Source of the DNA: Phenylobacterium sp.
GTDB taxonomy: Bacteria; Pseudomonadota; Alphaproteobacteria; Caulobacterales; Caulobacteraceae
NCBI RefSeq assembly: GCF_013822795.1
Contig: NZ_PNLB01000008.1
Span: forward strand, 62,001-126,000
DNA: 64,000 bases
Direction of reading: 5' to 3'
Shown: piece by piece, positions 789 through 44,524 of the stretch
Numbering within the stretch: the first letter of the stretch is position 1
Layout of the letters: each line of letters opens with the position of its first letter
Program-made: the position numbers and the translations under genes
The notes under the pieces: generated by a model
Databases searched by the model: none
The model's input: only the letters and a program-made list of their open reading frames with translations
What the model was told of the DNA's origin: nothing

Positions 789-995
789 GGGACCGGCCAA
801 GTCTCCTTCTGGCCCGCCCCGACGCCGCGGCGACTATAGCAAACCCAGCGCCGGCCAAACGCCCTCATCGGCGATCACGGTTCAAAATCATCGGCTTAGC
901 CGCAAATGCGACCAATCCGGACACCGGGTCGACCAGCAGGGAGCCGCAATCGCAGCTTTGCTGCTAACTTCTCGCGAGCAAACCCGAGGGCTGCG

Positions 996-2111
996 ATGTT
1001 CAAGACCGACGTATCGCGACAGGCCGCGTGGCTGACGCTCGGCATCTGGCTGCTGTCCGGCTCACTCGCCTCGACAATCGCCGCCATCGTCGGCGTGCGG
1101 ATGACCCCGGCCCTGGTCGGCACCGCCATCGCCATCAACCTGGTCGGCATCCTCTGCTCGGTGTTGCTCTACCGGGTCTCCGTGCACGTTCGCGACAAGA
1201 ACGCCTTCCAGCGCATCGCCCTGATGGCCGCCGCGGTCGTGTTCCTGGCCGCCGTCCTGTCCGGCTCGGACATGCTGATCATGGACCTCTCCAACACCGC
1301 CAAGCAGTGGTCGCCCAACCGCACCCTGTGGATGCGCTTCGCCAACAACGCCGGCGGCTTCTTCTGGATTTTGGGCGCCCTGGGCGCGATCTACACGACC
1401 CTCCAGGCCAACCACATGGTGCGCGAGCGCGAACGCCAGCTCGCCGACGCCCGCACCGCCGCCAGCGAGGCCCACGCCGCAGCCAGCGCCGCGCGTCTGG
1501 CCGCCCTGCGCTACCAGCTCAACCCGCACTTCCTGTTCAACACGCTCAACGCCGTCTCGTCCGCCGTCATCACCGGCCGCAACGACGAGGCCGAGAGCAT
1601 GCTCTCCAAGCTCGCCGACTTCCTGCGCGTGACCCTGGTCGCCGATCCCGAGGCGCTGATCTCGCTCGACGACGAGATGGCCACCCTCCAGGCCTATCTG
1701 GAGATCGAGAGCGTCCGCTTCCGCGAGCGACTGGCCCTGGAGTTCGTCTGCCCCGACGACCTGCGCACCGCGCTGATCCCCTCGTTCCTGCTGCAGCCGC
1801 TGATCGAGAACGCCATCAAGCACGCCGTCTCCCCGACCAGCGCCACCGTCACCATCCGCCTGGAAGCCACCCGCGACGGCGAGGACCTCGTGGTCCTGGT
1901 CCAGGACGACGGCGATGGCTCCCATGGGGGCGAAGTGCGCCCCGGCGCCGGCGTCGGGCTCAGCAATGTGCGCCAGCGGCTGGAAGCGCTCTATGGCCCG
2001 CGCGGCGTGCTGCAGGCCGCCCCGCTGGCCCGCGGCTTCCTCGCCATGGTGCGGCTGCCGCTGCAGCGCGCCGCCGCCGTCACTCCGCTCCGATCGAAAG
2101 CCGCCGCCTGA
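996..2111 (+). CDS. LytS/YpdA-type sensor histidine kinase
   Basis: The 371-residue protein has four predicted membrane helices (about 12-32, 37-58, 73-95 and 118-136), a short coiled stretch, then a His_kinase (PF06580-type) domain. The phospho-acceptor is H178 in LNPHFLFNTLN, the N-box asparagine is N272 (LIENAIKHA), and glycine-rich ATP-binding loops follow (DDGDG near 304-308, GAGVGLSN near 318-325). I chose the ATG at 996 because a CGAGGG ribosome site precedes it; an in-frame ATG at 906 gives a basic extension without a good site. The stop overlaps the start of the response regulator (TGATG), so the two are one operon and presumably a cognate pair. The signal sensed is not evident from sequence. 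Confidence 0.92.
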   Translation: MFKTDVSRQAAWLTLGIWLLSGSLASTIAAIVGVRMTPALVGTAIAINLVGILCSVLLYRVSVHVRDKNAFQRIALMAAAVVFLAAVLSGSDMLIMDLSNTAKQWSPNRTLWMRFANNAGGFFWILGALGAIYTTLQANHMVRERERQLADARTAASEAHAAASAARLAALRYQLNPHFLFNTLNAVSSAVITGRNDEAESMLSKLADFLRVTLVADPEALISLDDEMATLQAYLEIESVRFRERLALEFVCPDDLRTALIPSFLLQPLIENAIKHAVSPTSATVTIRLEATRDGEDLVVLVQDDGDGSHGGEVRPGAGVGLSNVRQRLEALYGPRGVLQAAPLARGFLAMVRLPLQRAAAVTPLRSKAAA

Positions 2112-2860
2112 TGCGTCTCCTGCTCGTCGACGACGAACCCGCCGCGCTCGAGCGGCTCTCGGCCCTGCTGACCCAGGTCAGCGACGTCGAGGTCGTGGGC
2201 CAGGCCCGCAACGGCCGCGAGGCCGCCGAGGCGGTCGAGGCCCTGAAGCCCGATCTGGTGCTGCTCGACATCCAGATGCCCGAGCGCAGCGGCCTCGACG
2301 TCGCCGCCGGTCTGCCGTTGGAGGAGCGGCCGGAGATCGTCTTCGTCACCGCCTTCGAGCTCTACGCCGCTGACGCCTTCGAGGTCGAGGCCGCCGACTA
2401 CCTGCTCAAGCCCGTCCGTTTCGACCGCCTGCGCCAGGCGATCGAGCGCGCCCGCCGCCGCCGCGCCATGCGCGCGGCCGCCGCCCGCGCCGAGGACGCC
2501 GCGGCCTCGCCGGCCGACGAGGATCCCGACGGCTTCTGGGTCCAGGTCCGCACCGGCTACGTGCGCGTGCCGCTGGGCGAGATCGACTGGATCGAGGCCG
2601 CCAAGGACTACGTGCTGCTGCACACCGCCACCCGCAGCCATATCCACCGCGCCACCATGACTGCGCTGGAGCGCAAGATGCCGCCGGCCGAGATGATCCG
2701 CGTGCACCGCTCGGCCTTCGTGCGGCCGGCCAAGGTCAAGGAGGTCAAGCGCCTGGGCAAGGGACTGATCTCGCTGGTGCTGGAGGACGGCGTCAACGTC
2801 GCCGTCGGCCCCTCCTACGTCAACGCGGTCACCGAGCGGCTGGCTCTCTACCAGGACTGA
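2111..2860 (+). CDS. LytTR-family response regulator
   Basis: This 249-residue regulator has an N-terminal receiver domain (1-120) with acidic pocket D7/D8, phospho-acceptor D53 (LLDIQMP), T80 and K100 (YLLKPVRF), an arginine- and alanine-rich linker, and a C-terminal LytTR DNA-binding domain (about 145-249, with WIEAAKDYVLLHT and the MIRVHRSAFV strand). LytTR proteins bind DNA as transcription activators. It overlaps the kinase gene by one base and is almost certainly its partner. Targets cannot be read from the sequence; I did not find a convincing repeated LytTR site pair in the adjacent intergenic DNA. Confidence 0.93.
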   Translation: MRLLLVDDEPAALERLSALLTQVSDVEVVGQARNGREAAEAVEALKPDLVLLDIQMPERSGLDVAAGLPLEERPEIVFVTAFELYAADAFEVEAADYLLKPVRFDRLRQAIERARRRRAMRAAAARAEDAAASPADEDPDGFWVQVRTGYVRVPLGEIDWIEAAKDYVLLHTATRSHIHRATMTALERKMPPAEMIRVHRSAFVRPAKVKEVKRLGKGLISLVLEDGVNVAVGPSYVNAVTERLALYQD

Positions 2861-2926: not shown

Positions 2927-3580
2927 TCAGCCGAAGGCCAGGCTCCGCCGACGATTGCGGATCGCGGTCCCGGCCAGGCCGAACCCCATGATCATCATCG
3001 CCCAGGTCGCCGGCTCCGGCACCGCGCTCGGCATCGCGCCGGTGACCAGCAGGTTGTCGAACTTCACCCCGCGGCCCAGCGCAGCATAGTCGCTGGCGAA
3101 CTGGAAGCGGATGTCGACCACCTGGCCGGCCAGCGCGCTCAGGTCGTACGTCGCCCGCCCCGACTGCGTGCCGGAATAGCCCTTGCCGCCCAGCAGCGTC
3201 GCGGCCCGGCCGGAGAGGTTGTAGTAGGTGTCGCTCGAAGCCGGGGTCAGCATCGCGCCCGGGCCGAACACGCCGCTGGTCGAGAACGCCAGGTTGAAGG
3301 CGTCGTAGCCGTACTCGCTGACGATGTCGTAGTCGAAGGCCAGCAGCGCGTCGGTCGCCTTCGTGAGGTCCAGTCGCACCTGATAGAACGAGTATTCGTT
3401 GTTGGTGTAGACGCCGCCCTGGTGGCCGACCGTGCCGCCTCCGACGCTGAACTTGCCGCCCAGGCTCTCGTTCGCGCCCAGCCCGGTGTTGAAGTTCTGC
3501 GAGAAGATCGTCGCGGCCTGCGCCGCTCCGGTCATCAGGGCGCTCGCGGCCACCGCCGCCAGCAGTATGCTTGTCTTCAT
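2927..3580 (-). CDS. PEPxxWA-CTERM sorting domain protein
   Basis: The 217-residue protein has a signal peptide (cleavage after AQA near residue 22), a beta-rich body resembling a carbohydrate- or cell-surface-binding jelly roll, and a C-terminal tripartite anchor: VPEPATWAMM, a hydrophobic helix, and a basic RNRRR end. This is the PEP-CTERM signal recognised by exosortase A systems in exopolysaccharide-producing Proteobacteria; no exosortase gene lies in the window. The substrate or surface role of the body cannot be told. It is transcribed alone, divergently from the ECF42 cassette, and ends at a clear terminator. Confidence 0.88.
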   Translation of the reverse strand: MKTSILLAAVAASALMTGAAQAATIFSQNFNTGLGANESLGGKFSVGGGTVGHQGGVYTNNEYSFYQVRLDLTKATDALLAFDYDIVSEYGYDAFNLAFSTSGVFGPGAMLTPASSDTYYNLSGRAATLLGGKGYSGTQSGRATYDLSALAGQVVDIRFQFASDYAALGRGVKFDNLLVTGAMPSAVPEPATWAMMIMGFGLAGTAIRNRRRSLAFG

Positions 3581-3764
3581 CAGAAGCCCTCGTTGAGCGC
3601 CGCGACGTCCGCGGCGGCTTTCGGGGACTCCTCTTGGCGAGCGCGGGCCGAAGCGTCAGCGCAGCTGCGCCCAAACCCGACCGGAGGGCGCTCCGCGCGA
3701 CGAAATACGACGTACGGTCGACCAGTCCTGTGCGACGTTCACCTCTAGTTTTATATCTGACCGA

Positions 3765-3791
3765 TGTCGGGAACGGGCGCCCTGCCCCGTC
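3765..3791 (+). promoter_or_regulatory. Candidate ECF42 promoter 1 (DGPF-sigma genes)
   Basis: TGTCGG (3765-3770), a 17-base spacer, then CGTC (3788-3791) continuing as CTTAGG. ECF42 sigma factors are reported to use TGTCGA-like -35 and CGTC-like -10 elements, and the same arrangement recurs at 5451, 38262 and 44524. It sits 24 bases before the YCII start codon, which fits autoregulation of the sigma gene. Confidence 0.6.
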
Positions 3792-3814
3792 CTTAGGGAG
3801 AACGAGACACACCC

Positions 3815-4180
3815 ATGCGCTACGCCATCCTTTGCTACAACGACGAAGCCGTGACCTCCGCCTGGAGCAAGGAGGAGGACGACGCGGTGATGGAAAAGCT
3901 GGAAGTGGTCCAGGAGCGGCTGCGACAGGAGGGCAAGCTCGGCCCGGCCATCCGCCTGCTGCCGACCACCTCGGCCACCACCCTGCGCAAGGCCCAGAAC
4001 CTGGTCGTGGACGGTCCGTTCGCCGAGACCAAGGAACAGCTGCTCGGCTTCTACATCGTCGACGTTGAAACCCTTGAGGACGGTCTGCAGATCGCCCGCG
4101 ACCTCGCCGTGGCCAATCCCGGCGGCGCGTACGAACTGCGTCCGATCGCCCTCTTCCTGCCCGGAATCGAGATGACGTGA
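3815..4180 (+). CDS. YCII/DGPF-domain protein, ECF42 partner
   Basis: This 121-residue protein is a YCII-related (DGPF) protein: the family motif DGPF is at 66-69 within VVDGPFAETKEQLLGFYIVD. DGPF proteins are ferredoxin-like folds of uncertain biochemical function that are nearly always encoded beside ECF42 sigma factors and are their main known targets. The ATG follows AGGGAG. Its TGA overlaps the GTG of the sigma gene (GTGA), so the two are translationally coupled. A candidate ECF42 promoter lies immediately upstream. Confidence 0.9.
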   Translation: MRYAILCYNDEAVTSAWSKEEDDAVMEKLEVVQERLRQEGKLGPAIRLLPTTSATTLRKAQNLVVDGPFAETKEQLLGFYIVDVETLEDGLQIARDLAVANPGGAYELRPIALFLPGIEMT

Positions 4181-5427
4181 CCACCGACCCCGCCTGGATC
4201 GACGCCGCCCTGACCTCCGCCCGCCCGCAGGCGGTCAGCGCCCTGCTGCGCTACTTCCGCGACCTCGACCTGGCCGAGGAGGCGTTCCAGGACGCCTGCC
4301 TGCGGGCGCTGAAGTCCTGGCCGGACAAGGGCCCTCCGCGCGATCCAGCCGCCTGGCTGATCCTGGTCGGCCGCAACAGCGGCATCGACGCCACGCGCCG
4401 GCGCTCGCGCCTCCAGGCCCTGCCCTCCGAAGTACTGCTGTCCGATCTCGACGACGTCGAGGCGCCGCTCGCCGAGCGTCTCGACGGCTCGGACTACCGC
4501 GACGACATCCTGCGGCTGCTGTTCATCTGCTGCCATCCGGACCTGCCGGCGGTGCAGCAGGTGGCCGTCGCCCTGCGCATCGTCAGCGGCTTGTCGGTCA
4601 AGCAGATCGCCCGCGCCTTCCTGGTCAGCGAGGCGGCGATGGAACAGCGCATCACCCGTGCCAAGGCCAAGATCGGCCAGGCCAACGTCGCCTTCGAGGC
4701 CCCCGGCCCCGCCGAGCGCGCCGAGCGCCTGGCCGCCGTCGCCGCGGTCATCTACCTGATCTTCAACGAGGGCTACTCCTCGACCGTGGCCGAGGCCGAC
4801 GCCCGCACGCCGTTCGCCGAAGAGGCCATCCGCCTCGCGCGCCTGCTGCTGCGCCTATTCCAGACCGAGCCGGAGATCATGGGTCTGGCCGCCCTGATGC
4901 TGCTGCAGCACTCGCGCGCCGCCGCCCGCTTCGACGCCGATGGCCAGATCGTGTTGCTCGACGACCAGGACCGCGGCCTCTGGAACCGCACCCTGATCGC
5001 CGAGGGCCTGGCCCTGATCGACAAGGCGCTGCGCCACGCCGCCCCCGGCCCCTACCAAGTCCAGGCCGCCATCGCCGCACTGCACGCCCGCGCCGCCAGC
5101 GCCGCCGACACCGACTGGCCCCAGATCGACCGGCTCTACGCCACGCTGGAGCAGATGAACCCCTCGCCGGTCGTCACCCTCAACCGCGCAGTCGCGGTCT
5201 CCAAGACGCAGGGACCAGAAGCGGCGCTGGCGATGATCGACCCGCTGGAGGCGCAGCTTTCCGGCTACTTCTACTTCCACGGGGCCCGCGGCAGCTTCCT
5301 CAAGCAGCTCGGCCGCAAGGACGAGGCGCGCATCGCCTTCGACCGCGCCATCGCCCTGGCCAACAGCGCGCCGGAGGCGGCCCACATCCGCCAGCACCTC
5401 GACAGCCTGGCCGGCGAGGCCGGCTGA
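4177..5427 (+). CDS. ECF42-type RNA polymerase sigma factor with C-terminal extension
   Basis: The 416-residue protein has sigma-2 (about 10-80, DLAEEAFQDACLRALKSWP), sigma-4 (about 115-165, SGLSVKQIARAFLVSEAAM) and a long alpha-helical DUF6596/TPR-like extension to the C-terminus. The length, the extension with its YFYFHGARGSFLKQLGR block, and the DGPF neighbour are the hallmarks of ECF group 42. In that group the extension replaces an anti-sigma factor as the regulatory part, and no anti-sigma gene is present here. The start is a GTG overlapping the upstream stop. Likely targets, judged by the repeated TGTCG-N17-CGTCCT motif, are its own operon, the genes from 5526, and the single genes at 38316 and 44453. 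Confidence 0.9.
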   Translation: MTTDPAWIDAALTSARPQAVSALLRYFRDLDLAEEAFQDACLRALKSWPDKGPPRDPAAWLILVGRNSGIDATRRRSRLQALPSEVLLSDLDDVEAPLAERLDGSDYRDDILRLLFICCHPDLPAVQQVAVALRIVSGLSVKQIARAFLVSEAAMEQRITRAKAKIGQANVAFEAPGPAERAERLAAVAAVIYLIFNEGYSSTVAEADARTPFAEEAIRLARLLLRLFQTEPEIMGLAALMLLQHSRAAARFDADGQIVLLDDQDRGLWNRTLIAEGLALIDKALRHAAPGPYQVQAAIAALHARAASAADTDWPQIDRLYATLEQMNPSPVVTLNRAVAVSKTQGPEAALAMIDPLEAQLSGYFYFHGARGSFLKQLGRKDEARIAFDRAIALANSAPEAAHIRQHLDSLAGEAG

Positions 5428-5450
5428 AACGCATTTTTTGCAAGACCCGC

Positions 5451-5477
5451 TGTCGGATCGGGCTAACCTCGTTCGTC
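5451..5477 (+). promoter_or_regulatory. Candidate ECF42 promoter 2 (VOC-SRPBCC-DoxX-DUF1801 genes)
   Basis: TGTCGG (5451-5456), exactly 17 bases, then CGTC (5474-5477) followed by CTTGGA. It matches site 1 in both boxes and spacing and lies 49 bases before the VOC start codon. Confidence 0.6.
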
Positions 5478-5525
5478 CTTGGATCAGACGCCCCTCTCAA
5501 GGGGCCAGCCAGGAAGGAAGCCGCC

Positions 5526-5975
5526 ATGTCCGTCACCGCGACCATGGAAACCACCGCCGGCGAACTCGCCGCGATCGATATGCCGCCGATGACCGGCGTC
5601 ACCCCGCACCTCAACCTCGTCGGCGCCAGCGACGCCTCGGCGTTCTACCAGAAGGCCTTCGGGGCCCGCGAAGCCTTCCGGCTGCCGGCCGACGACGGCC
5701 AGCGGCTGATGCACTGCGCGCTGGTGATCAACGGCGGCAATCTAATGATCTGCGACTGTTTCCCGGAAATGGGACACGGCTTCGAGCACCAGCCCTCGGC
5801 CTCGTTCACCATGCATCTGCAGGTCGACGACATCGAAGCCTGGTTCCAGCGCGCCGTCGACGCTGGCGCCCAGGTGCTGCAGCCCATCGAGGACATGTTC
5901 TGGGGCGACCGCTACGCCCGCCTGCTCGATCCCTACGGCGTCCACTGGGCGCTGGGCCAGACCAAGACAGGCTGA
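5526..5975 (+). CDS. VOC-superfamily (PhnB/glyoxalase-like) protein
   Basis: A 149-residue vicinal-oxygen-chelate fold protein: two beta-alpha-beta-beta-beta modules, starting at TPHLNLVGASDASAFYQKAFGA and ending with DPYGVHWALG. Members bind metals or small hydrophobic ligands, and PhnB-like members rarely have a proven reaction, so the substrate is unknown. AGGAAG precedes the ATG at 5526. It is the first gene after candidate ECF42 promoter 2 and is followed by SRPBCC, DoxX and DUF1801 genes in one tight operon. Proteins of all four kinds are common in ECF42 gene neighbourhoods. Confidence 0.85.
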   Translation: MSVTATMETTAGELAAIDMPPMTGVTPHLNLVGASDASAFYQKAFGAREAFRLPADDGQRLMHCALVINGGNLMICDCFPEMGHGFEHQPSASFTMHLQVDDIEAWFQRAVDAGAQVLQPIEDMFWGDRYARLLDPYGVHWALGQTKTG

Positions 5976-5991
5976 CCCGAAAGGACATCCC

Positions 5992-6519
5992 ATGCTCGCC
6001 GCGCTCATCGGCATCCTGATCATCGCGCTGTTGGGCTTGATCGCCTACGTCGCGAACCACCCCTCCGACTTCCGGCTCGAGCGCTCGACCACGGTCCGCG
6101 CCGCGCCGGAAACGCTCTTCGACCTGATTTCGGATTTCCACCGCTGGACCGCTTGGTCGCCGTTCGAAGGCATCGACGCCGACCTCAAGCGCGCCTACGG
6201 CGGGGCCGACCAGGGGGTCGGGGCGACCTACGGCTGGGAAGGACGCAAGACCGGGTCAGGAAGCATGGCCATCACCGAGGCCGAGAAACCCTCCCGGGTG
6301 CTGATCGACCTCATGTTCATCAAGCCGGTCCAGGCCCACAACAAGGCCGAGTTCACCCTCGAACCGGACGGCGATGCGACCAAGGTCACTTGGGCGATGT
6401 CAGGCCATAGCGGCTTCTTCGCCAAGCTGATCGATGTCTTCCTCCCGATGGAGAAGATGGTCGGACCGCGGTTCGAACAAGGCCTCGCCAAGCTCAAGGC
6501 GCTCGCCGAGCAGGCCTGA
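5992..6519 (+). CDS. SRPBCC (START-like) protein with N-terminal membrane anchor
   Basis: The 175-residue protein starts with a single hydrophobic helix (3-21) and continues as an SRPBCC/polyketide-cyclase-like domain (RSTTVRAAPETLFDLISDFHRWTAW is cut here to its key features: the start of strand 1 and the W-x-x-W segment). Such domains form a deep ligand pocket; the ligand is unknown. It begins 17 bases after the VOC gene and belongs to the same operon, so ECF42 control is inferred. Confidence 0.82.
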   Translation: MLAALIGILIIALLGLIAYVANHPSDFRLERSTTVRAAPETLFDLISDFHRWTAWSPFEGIDADLKRAYGGADQGVGATYGWEGRKTGSGSMAITEAEKPSRVLIDLMFIKPVQAHNKAEFTLEPDGDATKVTWAMSGHSGFFAKLIDVFLPMEKMVGPRFEQGLAKLKALAEQA

Positions 6520-6542: not shown

Positions 6543-6965
6543 ATGACCTCCCTCGACCCGGCGGCGCGCGCGACTGCGCCCGCCGCCTCCAAGGCCCTGA
6601 CCTGGGCCGGCTGGGGCCTCACGGGCCTGGCCACCCTGTTCATGACCTTCGACATCGCCATCAAGCTGATCGACCTCCAGATCGTCCGCGACACCATGGT
6701 CCAGCTCGGCTACCCGCCCGAGCTCGGCCGCACCATCGGCGTGATCGAGCTGATCTGTCTGGCCCTCTACCTGAACCCCCGGACGGCGGTGCTCGGCGCG
6801 GTGCTGTTCACCGGCGTCATGGGCGGAGCGATCGCCACTCACCTGCGGATCGGCGACCCGCTGTTCAGCCACGTCCTGTTCGGCGTCTATCTCGGCGCCG
6901 CGATCTGGGGCGGCCTTTGGCTGCGCGACACGCGCCTGCGCGCCCTCTTCCCCGTCCGTCTCTGA
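6543..6965 (+). CDS. DoxX family membrane protein
   Basis: A 140-residue protein with four predicted membrane helices (about 19-39, 60-78, 82-101 and 108-127) in the DoxX arrangement, including GYPPELGRTIGVIELICLAL. DoxX-like proteins are linked to redox or thiol-stress complexes in some bacteria, but no reaction can be assigned here. It sits 23 bases after the SRPBCC gene, with AAGGA upstream, in the ECF42-associated operon. Confidence 0.85.
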   Translation: MTSLDPAARATAPAASKALTWAGWGLTGLATLFMTFDIAIKLIDLQIVRDTMVQLGYPPELGRTIGVIELICLALYLNPRTAVLGAVLFTGVMGGAIATHLRIGDPLFSHVLFGVYLGAAIWGGLWLRDTRLRALFPVRL

Positions 6966-6979
6966 CCAGGAGCCTGAGC

Positions 6980-7327
6980 ATGTCCGACAAGGTCGACGCC
7001 TACCTCGCCGCCCTCATAGCCGTCCGCGCTGAAGCGCAGGCCGCCGGTCTCTCGGAAGACTTCAAATGGGGCCACCCCATGTGGTCCTCCGCCGATGGCG
7101 CGGTGTGCCTGATCAAGGGCTTCAAGACCCATGTGAACCTCGCGTTCTGGCGCGGAGCCCAGATGACCGAGCTCGACGCCCGGCTGACGCCCAGCGGCGG
7201 CTTCCAGATGGCGACGATCAAGTTGACCGATCCAGTCGAGCTGAACCCTGGCCAGCTCCGCGGCCTGATCGAGGCGGGCGCCGCGCTTAACGCCAAGCAC
7301 GGCGACCCGTTGAAGGCGAAAGCCTAG
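6980..7327 (+). CDS. DUF1801 domain protein
   Basis: The 115-residue product (from the ATG at 6980, after CAGGAG) matches the DUF1801/YdhG-like fold: an N-terminal helix, the FKWGHPMWSS segment around residues 28-37, and a strand with KTHVNLAFWRGA. Members resemble frataxin-like and iron-chaperone folds, but function is not established. It is the last gene of the operon that starts at 5526 and is followed by a strong hairpin. DUF1801 genes are frequent companions of ECF42/DGPF pairs. Confidence 0.82.
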   Translation: MSDKVDAYLAALIAVRAEAQAAGLSEDFKWGHPMWSSADGAVCLIKGFKTHVNLAFWRGAQMTELDARLTPSGGFQMATIKLTDPVELNPGQLRGLIEAGAALNAKHGDPLKAKA

Positions 7328-37104: not shown

Positions 37105-38250
37105 ATGTCCCTGCGCATCGATCCGTTCCACGCCATCTCCGTCAGCGGCCTGGCCCATCGGCTGAAGTCCGAGGGCCGCTCGGTGATCCACATGGAGTTC
37201 GGCCAGCCCTCGACCGGGGCGCCGAAGGCCGCGATCGAGGCCGCGCACCACGTGCTCGACAGCGATCCGATGGGCTACTGGGAAAGCCCGGCGCTGAAGG
37301 CGCGCATCGCCCGCCACTACAAGGACAAGTACGGCGTCGAGGTCGCGCCGAACCGCATCACCCTGACCTGCGGCGCCTCGCCGGCCCTGGTGCTGGCCCT
37401 GGCCTCGTCGTTCAATCCGGGCGACCGCGTCGCCCTGGCTCGGCCCGGCTACGTCGCCTATCGCAACACGCTGAAGGCCCTGCACATCGAGCCGGTGGAA
37501 CTGGCCTGCGGCGCGAACGAACGCTACCAGCTCAGCGCCGAGCGCATCGCCGCCCTGGACCCTGCCCCGGCCGGCGTGATCATCGCCAGCCCGGCCAACC
37601 CGACCGGGACCATCATTCCGGCCGCCGAGCTCGAGGCCATCGCCAAGGTCTGCCGCGAGCGGAACATCAAGATCGTCTCGGACGAGATTTATCACGGCCT
37701 CAGCTACGTCGAGCCGGCGCGCTCGATGCTGGAGTTCGAGCCGAACGCCCTCGTCGTCAACTCGTTCTCGAAATACTTCAGCATGGCCGGCTGGCGGCTC
37801 GGCTGGCTGCTGTCGCCGCCCGACCATGTGAAGGCGGCGATCGCCTATATGGGCGCGCTGTTCCTGACCCCGCCCTCGCTCGCCCAGCACGCGGCGCTGG
37901 CGGCGATGGACAGCGAGGACGAGCTGGAAGGCCACATCGAGGTCTATCGCGCCAACCGCGCCCTGCTGCTGGAGGCGCTGCCGCGGCTCGGTCTGTCGGC
38001 CATCGCGCCGCCGGACGGGGCCTTCTACATCTATGCCGACGTCGCCCACCTGACCGACGACAGCCTCAGCTTCTGCCAACGGCTGCTGCAGGACACCGGC
38101 GTGGCCACCGCGCCCGGCGTCGACTTCGACCCGGTCGAGGGCCACCACTTCATCCGCATGTCGTTCGCGGTCTCGACGCCCGAGATCGAGGAGGCGATTT
38201 CGCGGCTGGAGCCCTGGTTCGCCGCCCAGGCCGCGGCGAGCGCGAAATAA
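37105..38250 (+). CDS. PLP-dependent class I/II aminotransferase
   Basis: The 381-residue enzyme is an AspC/AAT-I-like aminotransferase: MEFGQPSTGAP near the N-terminus, SPANPTGT, the aspartate/tyrosine strand IVSDEIYHGLSY, the Schiff-base lysine in NSFSKYFSMAGWRLGW, and the substrate-carboxylate arginine near the C-terminus (HHFIRMSFA). Amino donor and acceptor cannot be decided. I start at the ATG at 37105, which gives the family-typical N-terminus. It is divergent from the broken SDR gene, about 90 bases away. Confidence 0.88.
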   Translation: MSLRIDPFHAISVSGLAHRLKSEGRSVIHMEFGQPSTGAPKAAIEAAHHVLDSDPMGYWESPALKARIARHYKDKYGVEVAPNRITLTCGASPALVLALASSFNPGDRVALARPGYVAYRNTLKALHIEPVELACGANERYQLSAERIAALDPAPAGVIIASPANPTGTIIPAAELEAIAKVCRERNIKIVSDEIYHGLSYVEPARSMLEFEPNALVVNSFSKYFSMAGWRLGWLLSPPDHVKAAIAYMGALFLTPPSLAQHAALAAMDSEDELEGHIEVYRANRALLLEALPRLGLSAIAPPDGAFYIYADVAHLTDDSLSFCQRLLQDTGVATAPGVDFDPVEGHHFIRMSFAVSTPEIEEAISRLEPWFAAQAAASAK

Positions 38251-38261
38251 TTCACGGCGGA

Positions 38262-38288
38262 TGTCGCATCGCGCCCGACTGCCGCGTC
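38262..38288 (+). promoter_or_regulatory. Candidate ECF42 promoter 3 (AHSA1-like SRPBCC gene)
   Basis: TGTCGC (38262-38267), exactly 17 bases, then CGTC (38285-38288) continuing CTAGGGG. It is 28 bases before the start codon at 38316, the same distance range as site 1 (24 bases). Confidence 0.55.
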
Positions 38289-38315
38289 CTAGGGGCAGAC
38301 CGCAAGGAGATCGAC

Positions 38316-38774
38316 ATGACCGACCGTGAACTCGTCCTGACCCGTATCGTCGACGTCCCCGCCGACAAGCTGTACCGCGGCTGGACCGAACCCGAGCTGA
38401 TGAAGCAGTGGTTCGCCCCAAAGCCGTTCACGGTGCCGGTCGCCGAGACCGACGTGCGCCCGGGCGGGTCCAGCTTCGTGGTCATGAAGGGTCCGGACGG
38501 GAACGAGTATCCCAACCGCGGCGTCTATCTCGACGTCGTGCCGGGCGAGAAGATCGTCTTCACCGACGCTTTCACCGAGGCGTGGACGCCCTCCGACAAG
38601 CCGTTTTTCGTCGGCACCATCACCTTCGAGGACCTCGGCGGCGGACAGACCCGCTACACCGCCGTCGCCCGCCACTGGAGCGTGGAGGACAAGCAGGCCC
38701 ACGAGCAGATGGGCTTCCACGAAGGCTGGGGGATCTGCCTCGACCAACTGGTCGAGGTGGCCAGGGCGCTCTAG
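38316..38774 (+). CDS. SRPBCC domain protein, AHSA1-like
   Basis: The 152-residue protein is an activator-of-Hsp90-homolog-like (AHSA1/CalC) SRPBCC protein: TRIVDVPADKLYRGWTEPELMKQWFAPK, quoted here only for the VDVPADKLY and MKQWFAP features, and the closing FHEGWGICLDQL helix. Such proteins are the most frequent companions of ECF42 and DGPF genes. AAGGAGA precedes the ATG. A candidate ECF42 promoter lies upstream, so it may be controlled by the sigma factor encoded at 4177. Confidence 0.87.
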   Translation: MTDRELVLTRIVDVPADKLYRGWTEPELMKQWFAPKPFTVPVAETDVRPGGSSFVVMKGPDGNEYPNRGVYLDVVPGEKIVFTDAFTEAWTPSDKPFFVGTITFEDLGGGQTRYTAVARHWSVEDKQAHEQMGFHEGWGICLDQLVEVARAL

Positions 38775-43976: not shown

Positions 43977-44453
43977 TCAGCCGGCGTGGGCGGCTTCCAG
44001 GTCGGCGACGATGATCTTGCTCATCTTCAGCATGGCCTGGACCACCCGCCCGGCCTTGGTCGGGTCGGGATCGCTCATCAGCCGCGGCAGCGCCTTGGGC
44101 ACGACCTGCCATGACAGTCCGAAGCGGTCCTTCAGCCAGGCGCACTGGCTGGGGGATCCGCCGCCGGCGATCAGCCCGTCCCAGTAGCGGTCGACCTCGG
44201 CCTGGTCCTCGCAGTCGATCACGAACGAGACCGCCTCGGTGAACTTGAAGTTCGGCCCGCCGTTCAGCGCCGTGAACCGTTGGCCGTCCAGCTCGAACTC
44301 CACGGTCATCACCTTGCCGTCCATGCCGCCAGGCGAGCCGGGCGGATAGCGCGTCACCGAGTGGATTTTCGAGTTCGGGAACAGCGAGACATAGAGCTCG
44401 GCCGCTTCGTGGGCCTGGCCGTCGAACCACAGGAACGGGTGGATCTTGCGCAT
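43977..44453 (-). CDS. VOC-superfamily PhnB-like protein
   Basis: The 158-residue protein is a PhnB/3-demethylubiquinone-methyltransferase-like VOC protein: KIHPFLWFDGQAHEAAELYVSLFPNS is its opening, cited for HPFLWFDGQA, with GGPNFKFTEAVSF and the CAWLKDRFGLSWQV segment. Function in this subfamily is unproven. I start at the ATG at 44453; a longer frame would run into the promoter. A TGTCGG-N17-CGTCCTT element lies 45 bases upstream, tying it to the ECF42 regulon. Confidence 0.87.
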   Translation of the reverse strand: MRKIHPFLWFDGQAHEAAELYVSLFPNSKIHSVTRYPPGSPGGMDGKVMTVEFELDGQRFTALNGGPNFKFTEAVSFVIDCEDQAEVDRYWDGLIAGGGSPSQCAWLKDRFGLSWQVVPKALPRLMSDPDPTKAGRVVQAMLKMSKIIVADLEAAHAG

Positions 44454-44497
44454 GTCGTCCTCTCCAAAGGCGCCCGCTGGCCGGGGCGTCTCCAAAG

Positions 44498-44524
44498 GAC
44501 GCACGAATACCGTCCACGCCGACA
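44498..44524 (-). promoter_or_regulatory. Candidate ECF42 promoter 4 (VOC gene at 44453)
   Basis: On the minus strand, TGTCGG (44524-44519), exactly 17 bases, then CGTC (44501-44498), continuing CTTTGG. It has the same boxes and spacing as sites 1 and 2, 40 kb away. Confidence 0.58.

What the first reader, a model, noticed from the sequence alone, without database searches (positions are those of the whole stretch)
3765..5477. ECF42 sigma cassette with two near-identical candidate autoregulated promoters
TGTCGG-N17-CGTCCTT occurs 24 bases before the DGPF-sigma pair (3765-3791) and 49 bases before the VOC-SRPBCC-DoxX-DUF1801 genes (5451-5477). The spacer length is exactly 17 in both. ECF42 sigma factors are known to recognise a TGTCGA-like/CGTC promoter and to be encoded beside DGPF proteins. 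Nothing else in the region explains two identical spaced boxes.
Basis: partly seen in the sequence, partly recalled or inferred. Interest (0 to 1): 0.82.

Follow-up and report, generated by a model that had tools for sequence, protein, structure and literature searches.

The report
ECF42 sigma factor's detox-like gene network
In a bacterium that is likely a Phenylobacterium, one two-box DNA signature (with small variations) stands before a sigma-factor operon and before nine other genes or gene groups, mostly small enzymes of detox-like families, and is predicted to be the switch by which that sigma factor turns on itself and this scattered set; the switch is of a known kind, but its extent here makes a poorly understood, likely stress-related response testable.

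Summary
TGTCGG-N17-CGTCCTT lies at 3765 and 5451; a third perfect copy (44524-44495, minus strand) precedes a PF06983 gene and a one-base variant (38262) an AHSA1 gene. A profile trained on sites of six other genomes of the genus ranks ten sites of this genome on top (E<=0.0018), before YCII, VOC, AHSA1, PF06983, DUF1428, DUF899 and ABC-transporter genes and a second ECF42 operon; the eleventh (E 0.012) precedes a GST gene.

Across 119 Caulobacteraceae genomes the motif follows the sigma factor: 239 copies in 51 genomes with ECF42, 29 in 68 without. 67 of 80 related loci carry it before the sigma operon, 41 of 80 again just after the sigma gene. Also found: a fixed 9-bp A/T tract 10-18 bp upstream of the -35 box (a predicted UP element), and promoter bases that differ between ECF42 subgroups (TGTCGG here, TGTCGA in divergent ones).

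The motif itself is not new: Sinorhizobium meliloti RpoE10 has mapped target promoters with it. Against self-activation: RpoE10 overexpression did not raise its own YCII gene. Only the first box would be autoregulatory; the second is a target promoter. A well-supported new member of a known kind.

The parts
3747..3755 (+). A/T tract (AGTTTTATA), predicted UP element of the sigma-operon promoter
   Evidence: 8 of 9 A/T; conserved tract at -18..-10 before the -35 box in 67 relatives' promoters, 0.87 A/T against 0.40 in the flank
3765..3794 (+). ECF42-type promoter 1: TGTCGG (-35) N17 CGTCCTT (-10); predicted start of transcription near 3800
   Evidence: E 7.8e-5; start position inferred from the SMc01149 promoter in Table 1 of PMC6180224
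3815..4180 (+). DGPF / YCII-family protein (121 aa, contains DGPF)
   Evidence: PF03795 E 4.1e-18
4177..5427 (+). ECF42 sigma factor: sigma2, sigma4, then a DUF6596 / TPR-like C-terminal extension (416 aa)
   Evidence: PF04542, PF08281, PF20239; weak TPR matches; all-helical C-terminal model, mean pLDDT 78.3 over the whole protein
5433..5441 (+). A/T tract (ATTTTTTGC), predicted UP element of promoter 2
   Evidence: 7 of 9 A/T
5451..5480 (+). ECF42-type promoter 2: TGTCGG N17 CGTCCTT; predicted start near 5486
   Evidence: E 1.7e-5; a second site within 300 bp after the sigma gene in 41 of 80 loci
5526..5975 (+). VOC (glyoxalase-fold) protein
   Evidence: PF00903 E 1.9e-13
5992..6519 (+). SRPBCC / polyketide-cyclase-like protein
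   Evidence: PF10604 E 2.3e-16
6543..6965 (+). DoxX-like membrane protein
   Evidence: PF13564 E 1.4e-20
6980..7327 (+). DUF1801 protein
   Evidence: PF08818 E 1.1e-11
38244..38252 (+). A/T tract (GAAATAATT), predicted UP element
   Evidence: 8 of 9 A/T
38262..38291 (+). ECF42-type promoter, variant TGTCGC N17 CGTCCTA
   Evidence: E 0.0018
38316..38774 (+). AHSA1 / SRPBCC protein, predicted target
   Evidence: PF08327 E 6.8e-33; AHSA1 is the commonest family after the motif in the 80 loci
44495..44524 (-). third perfect ECF42-type promoter TGTCGG N17 CGTCCTT (no A/T tract, 3 of 9)
   Evidence: E 0.00115
43977..44453 (-). PhnB-like 3-dmu-9_3-mt (PF06983) protein, predicted target
   Evidence: PF06983 E 6.8e-49; motif before strong PF06983 genes in 18 of 46 cases in ECF42+ genomes against 1 of 34 in ECF42- genomes

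Best explanation
The boxes at 3765 and 5451 match, base for base and in spacing, a mapped promoter of the ECF42-group sigma factor RpoE10 and are very likely the promoters by which the ECF42 sigma factor encoded at 4177-5427 would switch on its own DGPF-sigma operon and the neighbouring VOC-SRPBCC-DoxX-DUF1801 operon. SHOWN by sequence and calls: the box pair with its fixed 17-bp spacer recurs before a coherent set of small enzyme genes across this genome, follows the presence of ECF42 across 119 genomes, and stands before the sigma operon in 67 of 80 related loci. INFERRED: holoenzyme carrying this sigma reads TGTCGG with sigma4 and CGTC with sigma2; the alpha-subunit C-terminal domains bind the A/T tract 10-18 bp upstream; an unknown cytosolic signal (a protein or ligand acting on the TPR-like C-terminal extension, perhaps with the DGPF protein) switches the sigma between inactive and active; when active it raises its own operon (positive feedback) and, in parallel, unlinked VOC, AHSA1, PF06983, DUF1428, DUF899, YCII, GST and ABC-transporter genes, a response that looks like handling of reactive or foreign small molecules. 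The second ECF42 in the genome (42% identical) has a related promoter with a different -10 flank (CGTCGA) and probably has its own targets.
For: Motif copies 239 in 51 ECF42+ genomes (4.7 each; reversed control 26) against 29 in 68 ECF42- genomes (0.43 each; control 34), Mann-Whitney p 4e-11; in the window's genus nine ECF42+ genomes have 2-13 copies, eight ECF42- genomes 0-1. 67 of 80 related loci have TGTCGG-N17-CGTC before the DGPF-sigma operon, other spacers 0-2; 7 of the other 13 have TGTCGG-N17-CGT at the same place. Genes after 76 non-sigma sites of those loci (89 candidate ORFs): AHSA1 26, Glyoxalase 18, PF06983 11, DoxX_2 10; after 85 wrong-spacer sites (64 distinct ORFs): AHSA1 0, the other three 1 each. 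The profile trained on other genomes' sites puts the ten own sites at ranks 1-10. Strong PF06983 genes carry the motif in 18 of 46 cases where ECF42 is present, 1 of 34 where absent. G059 and G074 have a window-type ECF42 (71% and 74% identical) as their only one and keep 5 and 6 sites; the eight genomes whose best ECF42 scores under 100 bits (34-45% identical to the window's) have 0-2. Mapped RpoE10 target promoters of S. meliloti have the same boxes and spacer (PMC6180224 Table 1 passage and section 12).
Against: No expression data for this organism. In S. meliloti the YCII gene SMc01151 did not rise on RpoE10 overexpression and the motif overlaps its mapped start, so positive feedback may fail there. 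By the strict pattern 13 of 80 loci lack the upstream site. 10 of 43 genomes with a high-scoring ECF42 have fewer than two sites (three of these checked, G007, G043, G115: their ECF42s are only 44-50% identical to the window's), and 6 of 68 ECF42- genomes have two or more. Weak PF06983 relatives show no significant link (2 of 15 against 0 of 19). Of 62 genus sites only 32 have 5 or more A/T of 9 in the tract, and the genes after the 62 sites fall into 52 Pfam families, not only the listed ones, so part of the genome-wide hits are chance. Six of the 32 training sites of the profile come from a near relative (G098) with near-identical sites. Two ECF42 sigmas coexist here and cross-talk is untested. 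The PF06983 and DUF899 sites of this genome lack the A/T tract.
Confidence: 0.9

Rival explanations
1. The sites are ECF42 promoters, but the second ECF42 of the genome (contig C13, 42% identical), not the window's, reads most of them, or both read all of them as one shared regulon.
For: Both operons have TGTCGG-N17-CGTC upstream; the C13 site is in the top ten of the profile scan.
Against: G059 and G074 have a window-type ECF42 as their only one and keep 5 and 6 CGTCCT sites; the eight genomes with only low-scoring, divergent ECF42s have 0-2. C13-type promoters read CGTCGA in the three loci seen.
Confidence: 0.2
2. The boxes are real promoters of the enzyme genes, but the sigma operon is not self-activated: its box is silent or occluded, and another promoter drives it.
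For: SMc01151 not induced by RpoE10 overexpression; its motif overlaps its mapped start (PMC6180224).
Against: 67 of 80 relatives keep box, spacer and A/T tract before the sigma operon at a nearly constant position, which an idle site would not be expected to do.
Confidence: 0.15
3. Chance matches or a shared binding site of another transcription factor rather than a sigma promoter.
For: High-GC genome; TGTCGG-N16-18-CGTC occurs 151 times in the genome.
Against: Exact spacing, dependence on ECF42 presence, target coherence and mapped RpoE10 promoters.
Confidence: 0.03

Closest known systems
Sinorhizobium meliloti RpoE10 (ECF42) and its targets SMc01149-SMc01148 and SMb20475-SMb20474 (PMC6180224; section 12 and table passages read)
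   Same: YCII gene upstream of the sigma gene; TPR C-terminal extension; TGTCGG-N17-CGTC promoters, SMc01149's with the same CGTCCTT; one target protein predicted to bind hydrophobic ligands and two glyoxalase-like ones; a target operon with a neighbouring locus number
   Different: Six genes responded there; here ten promoters on six contigs (eleven on seven with the GST gene) are predicted. Autoregulation was not seen there; the terms UP element and A-tract do not occur in its main text.
Streptomyces venezuelae ECF42 sigmas Sven_0747, Sven_4377, Sven_7131 (Liu et al. 2018; paper not held; seen only as described in PMC8999054)
   Same: sigma2-sigma4 plus TPR-rich extension, YCII-domain neighbour
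   Different: That paper's target set could not be read here; recalled as essentially the DGPF genes with a TGTCGA-like -35.
Pseudomonas putida ECF-10 (seen only as described in PMC8999054 and PMC6180224)
   Same: ECF42 group, similar gene context; linked to antibiotic and oxidative stress
   Different: Different class of proteobacteria; its promoters were not examined here
Caulobacter vibrioides YCII-sigma fusion protein Q9A8M4 (mentioned in PMC8999054)
   Same: same family of bacteria, same two partners
   Different: There one fused protein; here two overlapping genes (sigma start codon 4177 overlaps the DGPF stop at 4178-4180)

Membership tests
ECF42 sigma factors | sigma2 and sigma4 domains, no sigma3 | tested here: met
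   PF04542 16-78 and PF08281 115-166, no sigma3 match listed
ECF42 sigma factors | about 200-residue C-terminal extension of the DUF6596 type | tested here: met
   PF20239 E 1.3e-34, residues 184-284; the protein runs to residue 416
ECF42 sigma factors | tetratricopeptide repeats in the extension | tested here: inconclusive
   TPR_8 E 0.0013 and others, all under Pfam's cut-offs; modelled helical hairpins, pLDDT mostly above 90 from residue 231 to 390; best Foldseek matches include TPR proteins (Tom70, designed TPR) and ECF sigmas, but none better than E 1e-3 and with low TM-scores
ECF42 sigma factors | DGPF/YCII gene next door, co-oriented | tested here: met
   PF03795 E 4.1e-18 at 3815-4180, overlapping the sigma start
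ECF42 sigma factors | no anti-sigma gene nearby | tested here: met
   the five co-oriented genes around it are YCII, VOC, SRPBCC, DoxX_2 and DUF1801; no dedicated search for an unrecognised anti-sigma was made
ECF42 sigma factors | target promoters TGTCG(A/G) with CGTC -10 | tested here: met
   compared with the RpoE10 promoters
ECF42 sigma factors | extension required for activity; sigma-dependent transcription | not testable with these tools
   needs mutants and 5'-end mapping

The most novel reading that the evidence does not exclude
ECF42 sigma factors of Caulobacteraceae form an insulated promoter code: co-resident ECF42 paralogs share one three-part promoter (9-bp A/T UP tract, TGTCG(R), N17, CGTC) but are kept apart by two or three bases (window type TGTCGG with CGTCNT; divergent types TGTCGA with CGTCTC; C13 type CGTCGA), matched by fixed sigma2 differences such as residue 67 Asn in the window type and Arg in the others; each commands a genome-wide small-molecule detox regulon, here of VOC, SRPBCC/AHSA1, PF06983, DUF1428, DUF899, YCII, GST and ABC-transporter genes, that is gained and lost with its sigma factor.
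Probability: 0.45. Interest if true: 0.62.

Novelty: new member of a known kind. Interest (0 to 1): 0.45.

Why it matters
ECF42 is a widespread sigma-factor group; the papers open to me name no inducing signal and few targets. A regulon that can be read from sequence gives promoter-reporter panels for screening inducers, suggests a shared regulator for enzyme families of unknown function (DGPF/YCII, DUF1428, DUF899, DUF1801, PF06983), and supplies a promoter part (the A/T tract) and candidate specificity bases that matter for building orthogonal sigma-factor switches. It also makes the open question of ECF42 self-activation directly testable.

Tried and rejected
Spacer scan on its own genome: not convincing by itself, since codon phase makes spacers 21 and 24 commoner than 17; replaced by comparative tests. 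Plain count of TGTCGG-N16-18-CGTC (151 places): mostly chance, not used.

PF06983 co-inheritance: within the genus the gene is present in 8 of 9 ECF42+ and 0 of 8 ECF42- genomes, but family-wide it is also common without ECF42 (76 of 119 genomes have it), so gain and loss of the gene with the sigma is only a genus-level observation; the promoter, not the gene, is what follows the sigma. In one search I left out 13 genomes whose motif places were not fully listed (G005 G008 G009 G015 G019 G026 G030 G032 G044 G071 G086 G096 G113) and two PF06983 rows below the family's cut-off; one member at 73 bits fell in neither the strong (90 or more) nor the weak (under 60) class.

(protein search with the PhnB-like gene) used a query one base out of frame, so I drew nothing from it; one search replaces it.

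Exceptions followed: ECF42- genome G012 has two divergent sites; beside one is only a 41-residue remnant of a DGPF gene and no sigma gene, read as a recent loss. G003, G010, G015, G018 and G030 also show no ECF42 by protein search (best E 1.9e-8 to an ordinary sigma-length frame); a missing contig (G003 is in about 360 pieces) or chance remain possible.

TGTCGA-N17-CGTCCT before an aldehyde dehydrogenase gene (C1:223137) was dropped: it is not among the 53 matches (which scored 150 of 10,684 first-look candidates) and has no other support.

Literature: Liu et al. 2018 could not be read; Wu et al. 2019 was seen only as a citation. Searches behind any statement about print: (ECF42, 11 papers). 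Of the 11 ECF42 papers I saw passages of seven (PMC8999054, PMC6180224, PMC8103513, PMC9023288, PMC7730460, PMC10880074, and PMC9205884, a reference line only); the other four only as listing rows. Passages of PMC11256431, PMC11119718, PMC3817407 and PMC5333181 were also seen. UP elements on ECF promoters in general are in print (PMC10880074, PMC3817407, PMC5333181). None of the passages seen describes an A/T tract of ECF42 promoters or a genome-wide ECF42 regulon in Caulobacteraceae, which does not show that none is in print.
Full report
WHAT IS THERE. Window 3815-5427 holds a DGPF/YCII gene overlapping an ECF sigma gene whose product has sigma2, sigma4 and a DUF6596 extension. The sigma is 94% identical to that of Phenylobacterium haematophilum DSM 21793, so the organism is likely a Phenylobacterium.

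GENOME SCAN. TGTCGG-N17-CGTCCT occurs 8 times in the 4.41-Mb genome against 1 reversed control (G000 row); TGTCGN-N17-CGTCCT 11 against 2. To lessen circularity I built a sequence profile from sites of OTHER genomes of the genus (eight genomes, 62 sites, of which the 32 with 5 or more A/T in the tract were used; these come from six of the eight genomes, and 6 of the 32 from G098, a near relative with near-identical sites) and searched this genome. Ranks 1-10 (E 2.7e-6 to 0.0018) are: an ABC-transporter ATPase gene, window promoters 2 and 1, DUF1428, the YCII gene of the second ECF42 operon, a bleomycin-resistance-like VOC gene, DUF899, another YCII gene, PF06983 and AHSA1 (gene calls: 11, 24, 47, 52, 92). 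Rank 11 (E 0.012) has -10 CGTT and stands before a glutathione S-transferase gene; GST genes also follow the motif in relatives. Rank 12 falls to E 0.097.

THE MOTIF FOLLOWS THE SIGMA FACTOR. In 119 Caulobacteraceae genomes, 51 with ECF42 (PF20239) hold 239 copies (reversed control 26), 68 without hold 29 (control 34); p 4e-11. In the window's genus the nine with ECF42 have 8, 13, 10, 5, 6, 8, 9, 9, 2 copies; the eight without have 1, 0, 0, 0, 0, 0, 1, 0. Exceptions: 10 of 43 genomes with a high-scoring ECF42 (100 bits or more) have fewer than two copies (three checked: their ECF42s are only 44-50% identical to the window's); 6 genomes without ECF42 have two or more. One of the six, G012, holds a 41-residue DGPF remnant and no sigma gene beside two intact divergent sites, read as the trace of a recent loss. 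For one target family, PF06983, the motif lies within 150 bp upstream in 18 of 46 strong members of ECF42+ genomes and 1 of 34 of ECF42- genomes (p 1e-4); for weak members 2 of 15 and 0 of 19 (p 0.19) (13 genomes left out for incomplete listing).

RELATED LOCI. Of 80 loci from named contigs, mostly alphaproteobacterial (the best 80 kept of 568 confirmed), 67 have TGTCGG-N17-CGTC about 420 bp before the sigma gene, i.e. before the DGPF gene; other spacers give 0-2; 7 of the remaining 13 have TGTCGG-N17-CGT at the same place; 41 of 80 have another TGTCG[GA]-N17-CGTC within 300 bp after the sigma gene; the reversed pattern occurs twice in 0.98 Mb. Genes after the 76 other TGTCGG sites (73 with an ORF, 89 candidate ORFs): AHSA1 26, Glyoxalase 18, Polyketide_cyc2 12, PF06983 11, DoxX_2 10, RibD_C 5, YCII 3, SnoaL_3 3, DUF899 2, GST 2. 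After 85 wrong-spacer sites (53 with an ORF; 64 distinct ORFs after removing 3 duplicates): Glyoxalase, DoxX_2 and PF06983 once each, AHSA1 0. Genome-wide in eight relatives (62 sites, 60 with an ORF, 77 candidate ORFs, 52 Pfam families of which 25 shown): Glyoxalase 9, PF06983 8, YCII 8, DUF1428 7, ABC 6, AHSA1 4, Sortilin/BNR 4. One relative fuses DUF1428 with VOC domains in one protein under this promoter (L205).

A THIRD PROMOTER ELEMENT. Aligned on TGTCGG, the columns -18 to -10 are a sharply bounded A/T tract (A-rich then T-rich): 0.87 A/T in 67 sigma-operon promoters against 0.40 in the flank; 0.80 against 0.42 in the 76 other sites; 0.36 against 0.36 in 87 wrong-spacer sites; 0.51 against 0.29 in the genus set of 62; 8 of 10 own sites have 7 or more of 9, the PF06983 and DUF899 sites only 3. 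Taking the lower-case base of the SMc01149 sequence in Table 1 of PMC6180224 as the start (C of CGTC then at -12), the tract lies at about -53 to -45, where an UP element sits (recalled); that the alpha subunit binds it is inferred. UP elements on ECF promoters in general are known.

SUBGROUPS. The genome's second ECF42 is 42% identical to the first. Three loci of its kind have promoters with CGTCGA. For more divergent ECF42s I looked at 22 loci (19 fetched from low-scoring PF20239 hits, 3 in the genus; 35-45% identical to the window's; not shown by a tree to be one clade): 21 have the spacer-17 pair, 20 of them TGTCGA and 1 TGTCGG, 16 with CGTCTC, with the same A/T tract (0.71 against 0.36). 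In the window's subgroup the sixth base is G in 67 of 67 sigma-operon sites and CGTC is followed by TT 30, CT 27, AT 7, TA 2, GT 1. Sigma2 residue 67 is Asn in 87 of 87 of the window's kind and Arg in 22 of 22 and 3 of 3 of the others. That these bases insulate the paralogs is a hypothesis.

WHAT IS KNOWN. S. meliloti RpoE10 (ECF42) raised six genes when overexpressed; SMc01149's promoter is TGTCGG-N17-CGTCCTT and SMb20475's TGTCGG-N17-CGTCATC; SMc01148 and SMb20475 are glyoxalase-like (PMC6180224). [quoted passage not shown] So the boxes in the window are ECF42 promoters of a known kind; autoregulation is likely from conservation but unproven. A review suggests that the YCII partner takes part in regulation through the TPR extension (PMC8999054); a research paper relates the suggestion that a ligand, possibly a protein, bound to the TPR domain suppresses ECF42 activity (PMC9023288).

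VERDICT. Observation confirmed and extended; interpretation right in kind, corrected in detail. New member of a known kind, with an extended predicted regulon, a third promoter element and a proposed promoter code as the parts worth testing.

Noticed in passing
window 3747-3755, 5433-5441, 38244-38252: Nine-base A/T tract 10-18 bp upstream of the -35 box, conserved in ECF42 promoters of related loci: a predicted UP element.
   Followed up: yes
L316-L333, L312, L314, L315: Divergent ECF42s have TGTCGA-N17-CGTC upstream (21 of 22 loci have the box pair, 20 of them with A at the sixth base, 16 with CGTCTC); possible insulation of paralogous regulons.
   Followed up: partly
L191 (genome G012): Trace of ECF42 loss: a 41-residue DGPF remnant without a sigma gene, facing an AHSA1-like gene that still has an intact ECF42-type promoter.
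   Followed up: yes
L205 1583-2719: Natural fusion of DUF1428 with VOC domains under the ECF42-type promoter in another genome of the genus.
   Followed up: no
L208, L221, L260: Sortilin/BNR-type repeat proteins of about 375 aa recur after the motif in the genus; function in this regulon unknown.
   Followed up: no
window 2930-3580 (-): PEP-CTERM protein with an InhA-like MAM domain just upstream of the cassette, divergently oriented.
   Followed up: no
window 906-2860: Histidine kinase (PF06580) followed by a response-regulator-like gene with a LytTR-like C-terminus (the last by eye).
   Followed up: no
window 3788-3815: If transcription starts near 3800 the DGPF leader is only about 15 nt and a purine-rich AGGGAG (3795-3800) lies at or upstream of the start; translation would then use a very short leader.
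   Followed up: no
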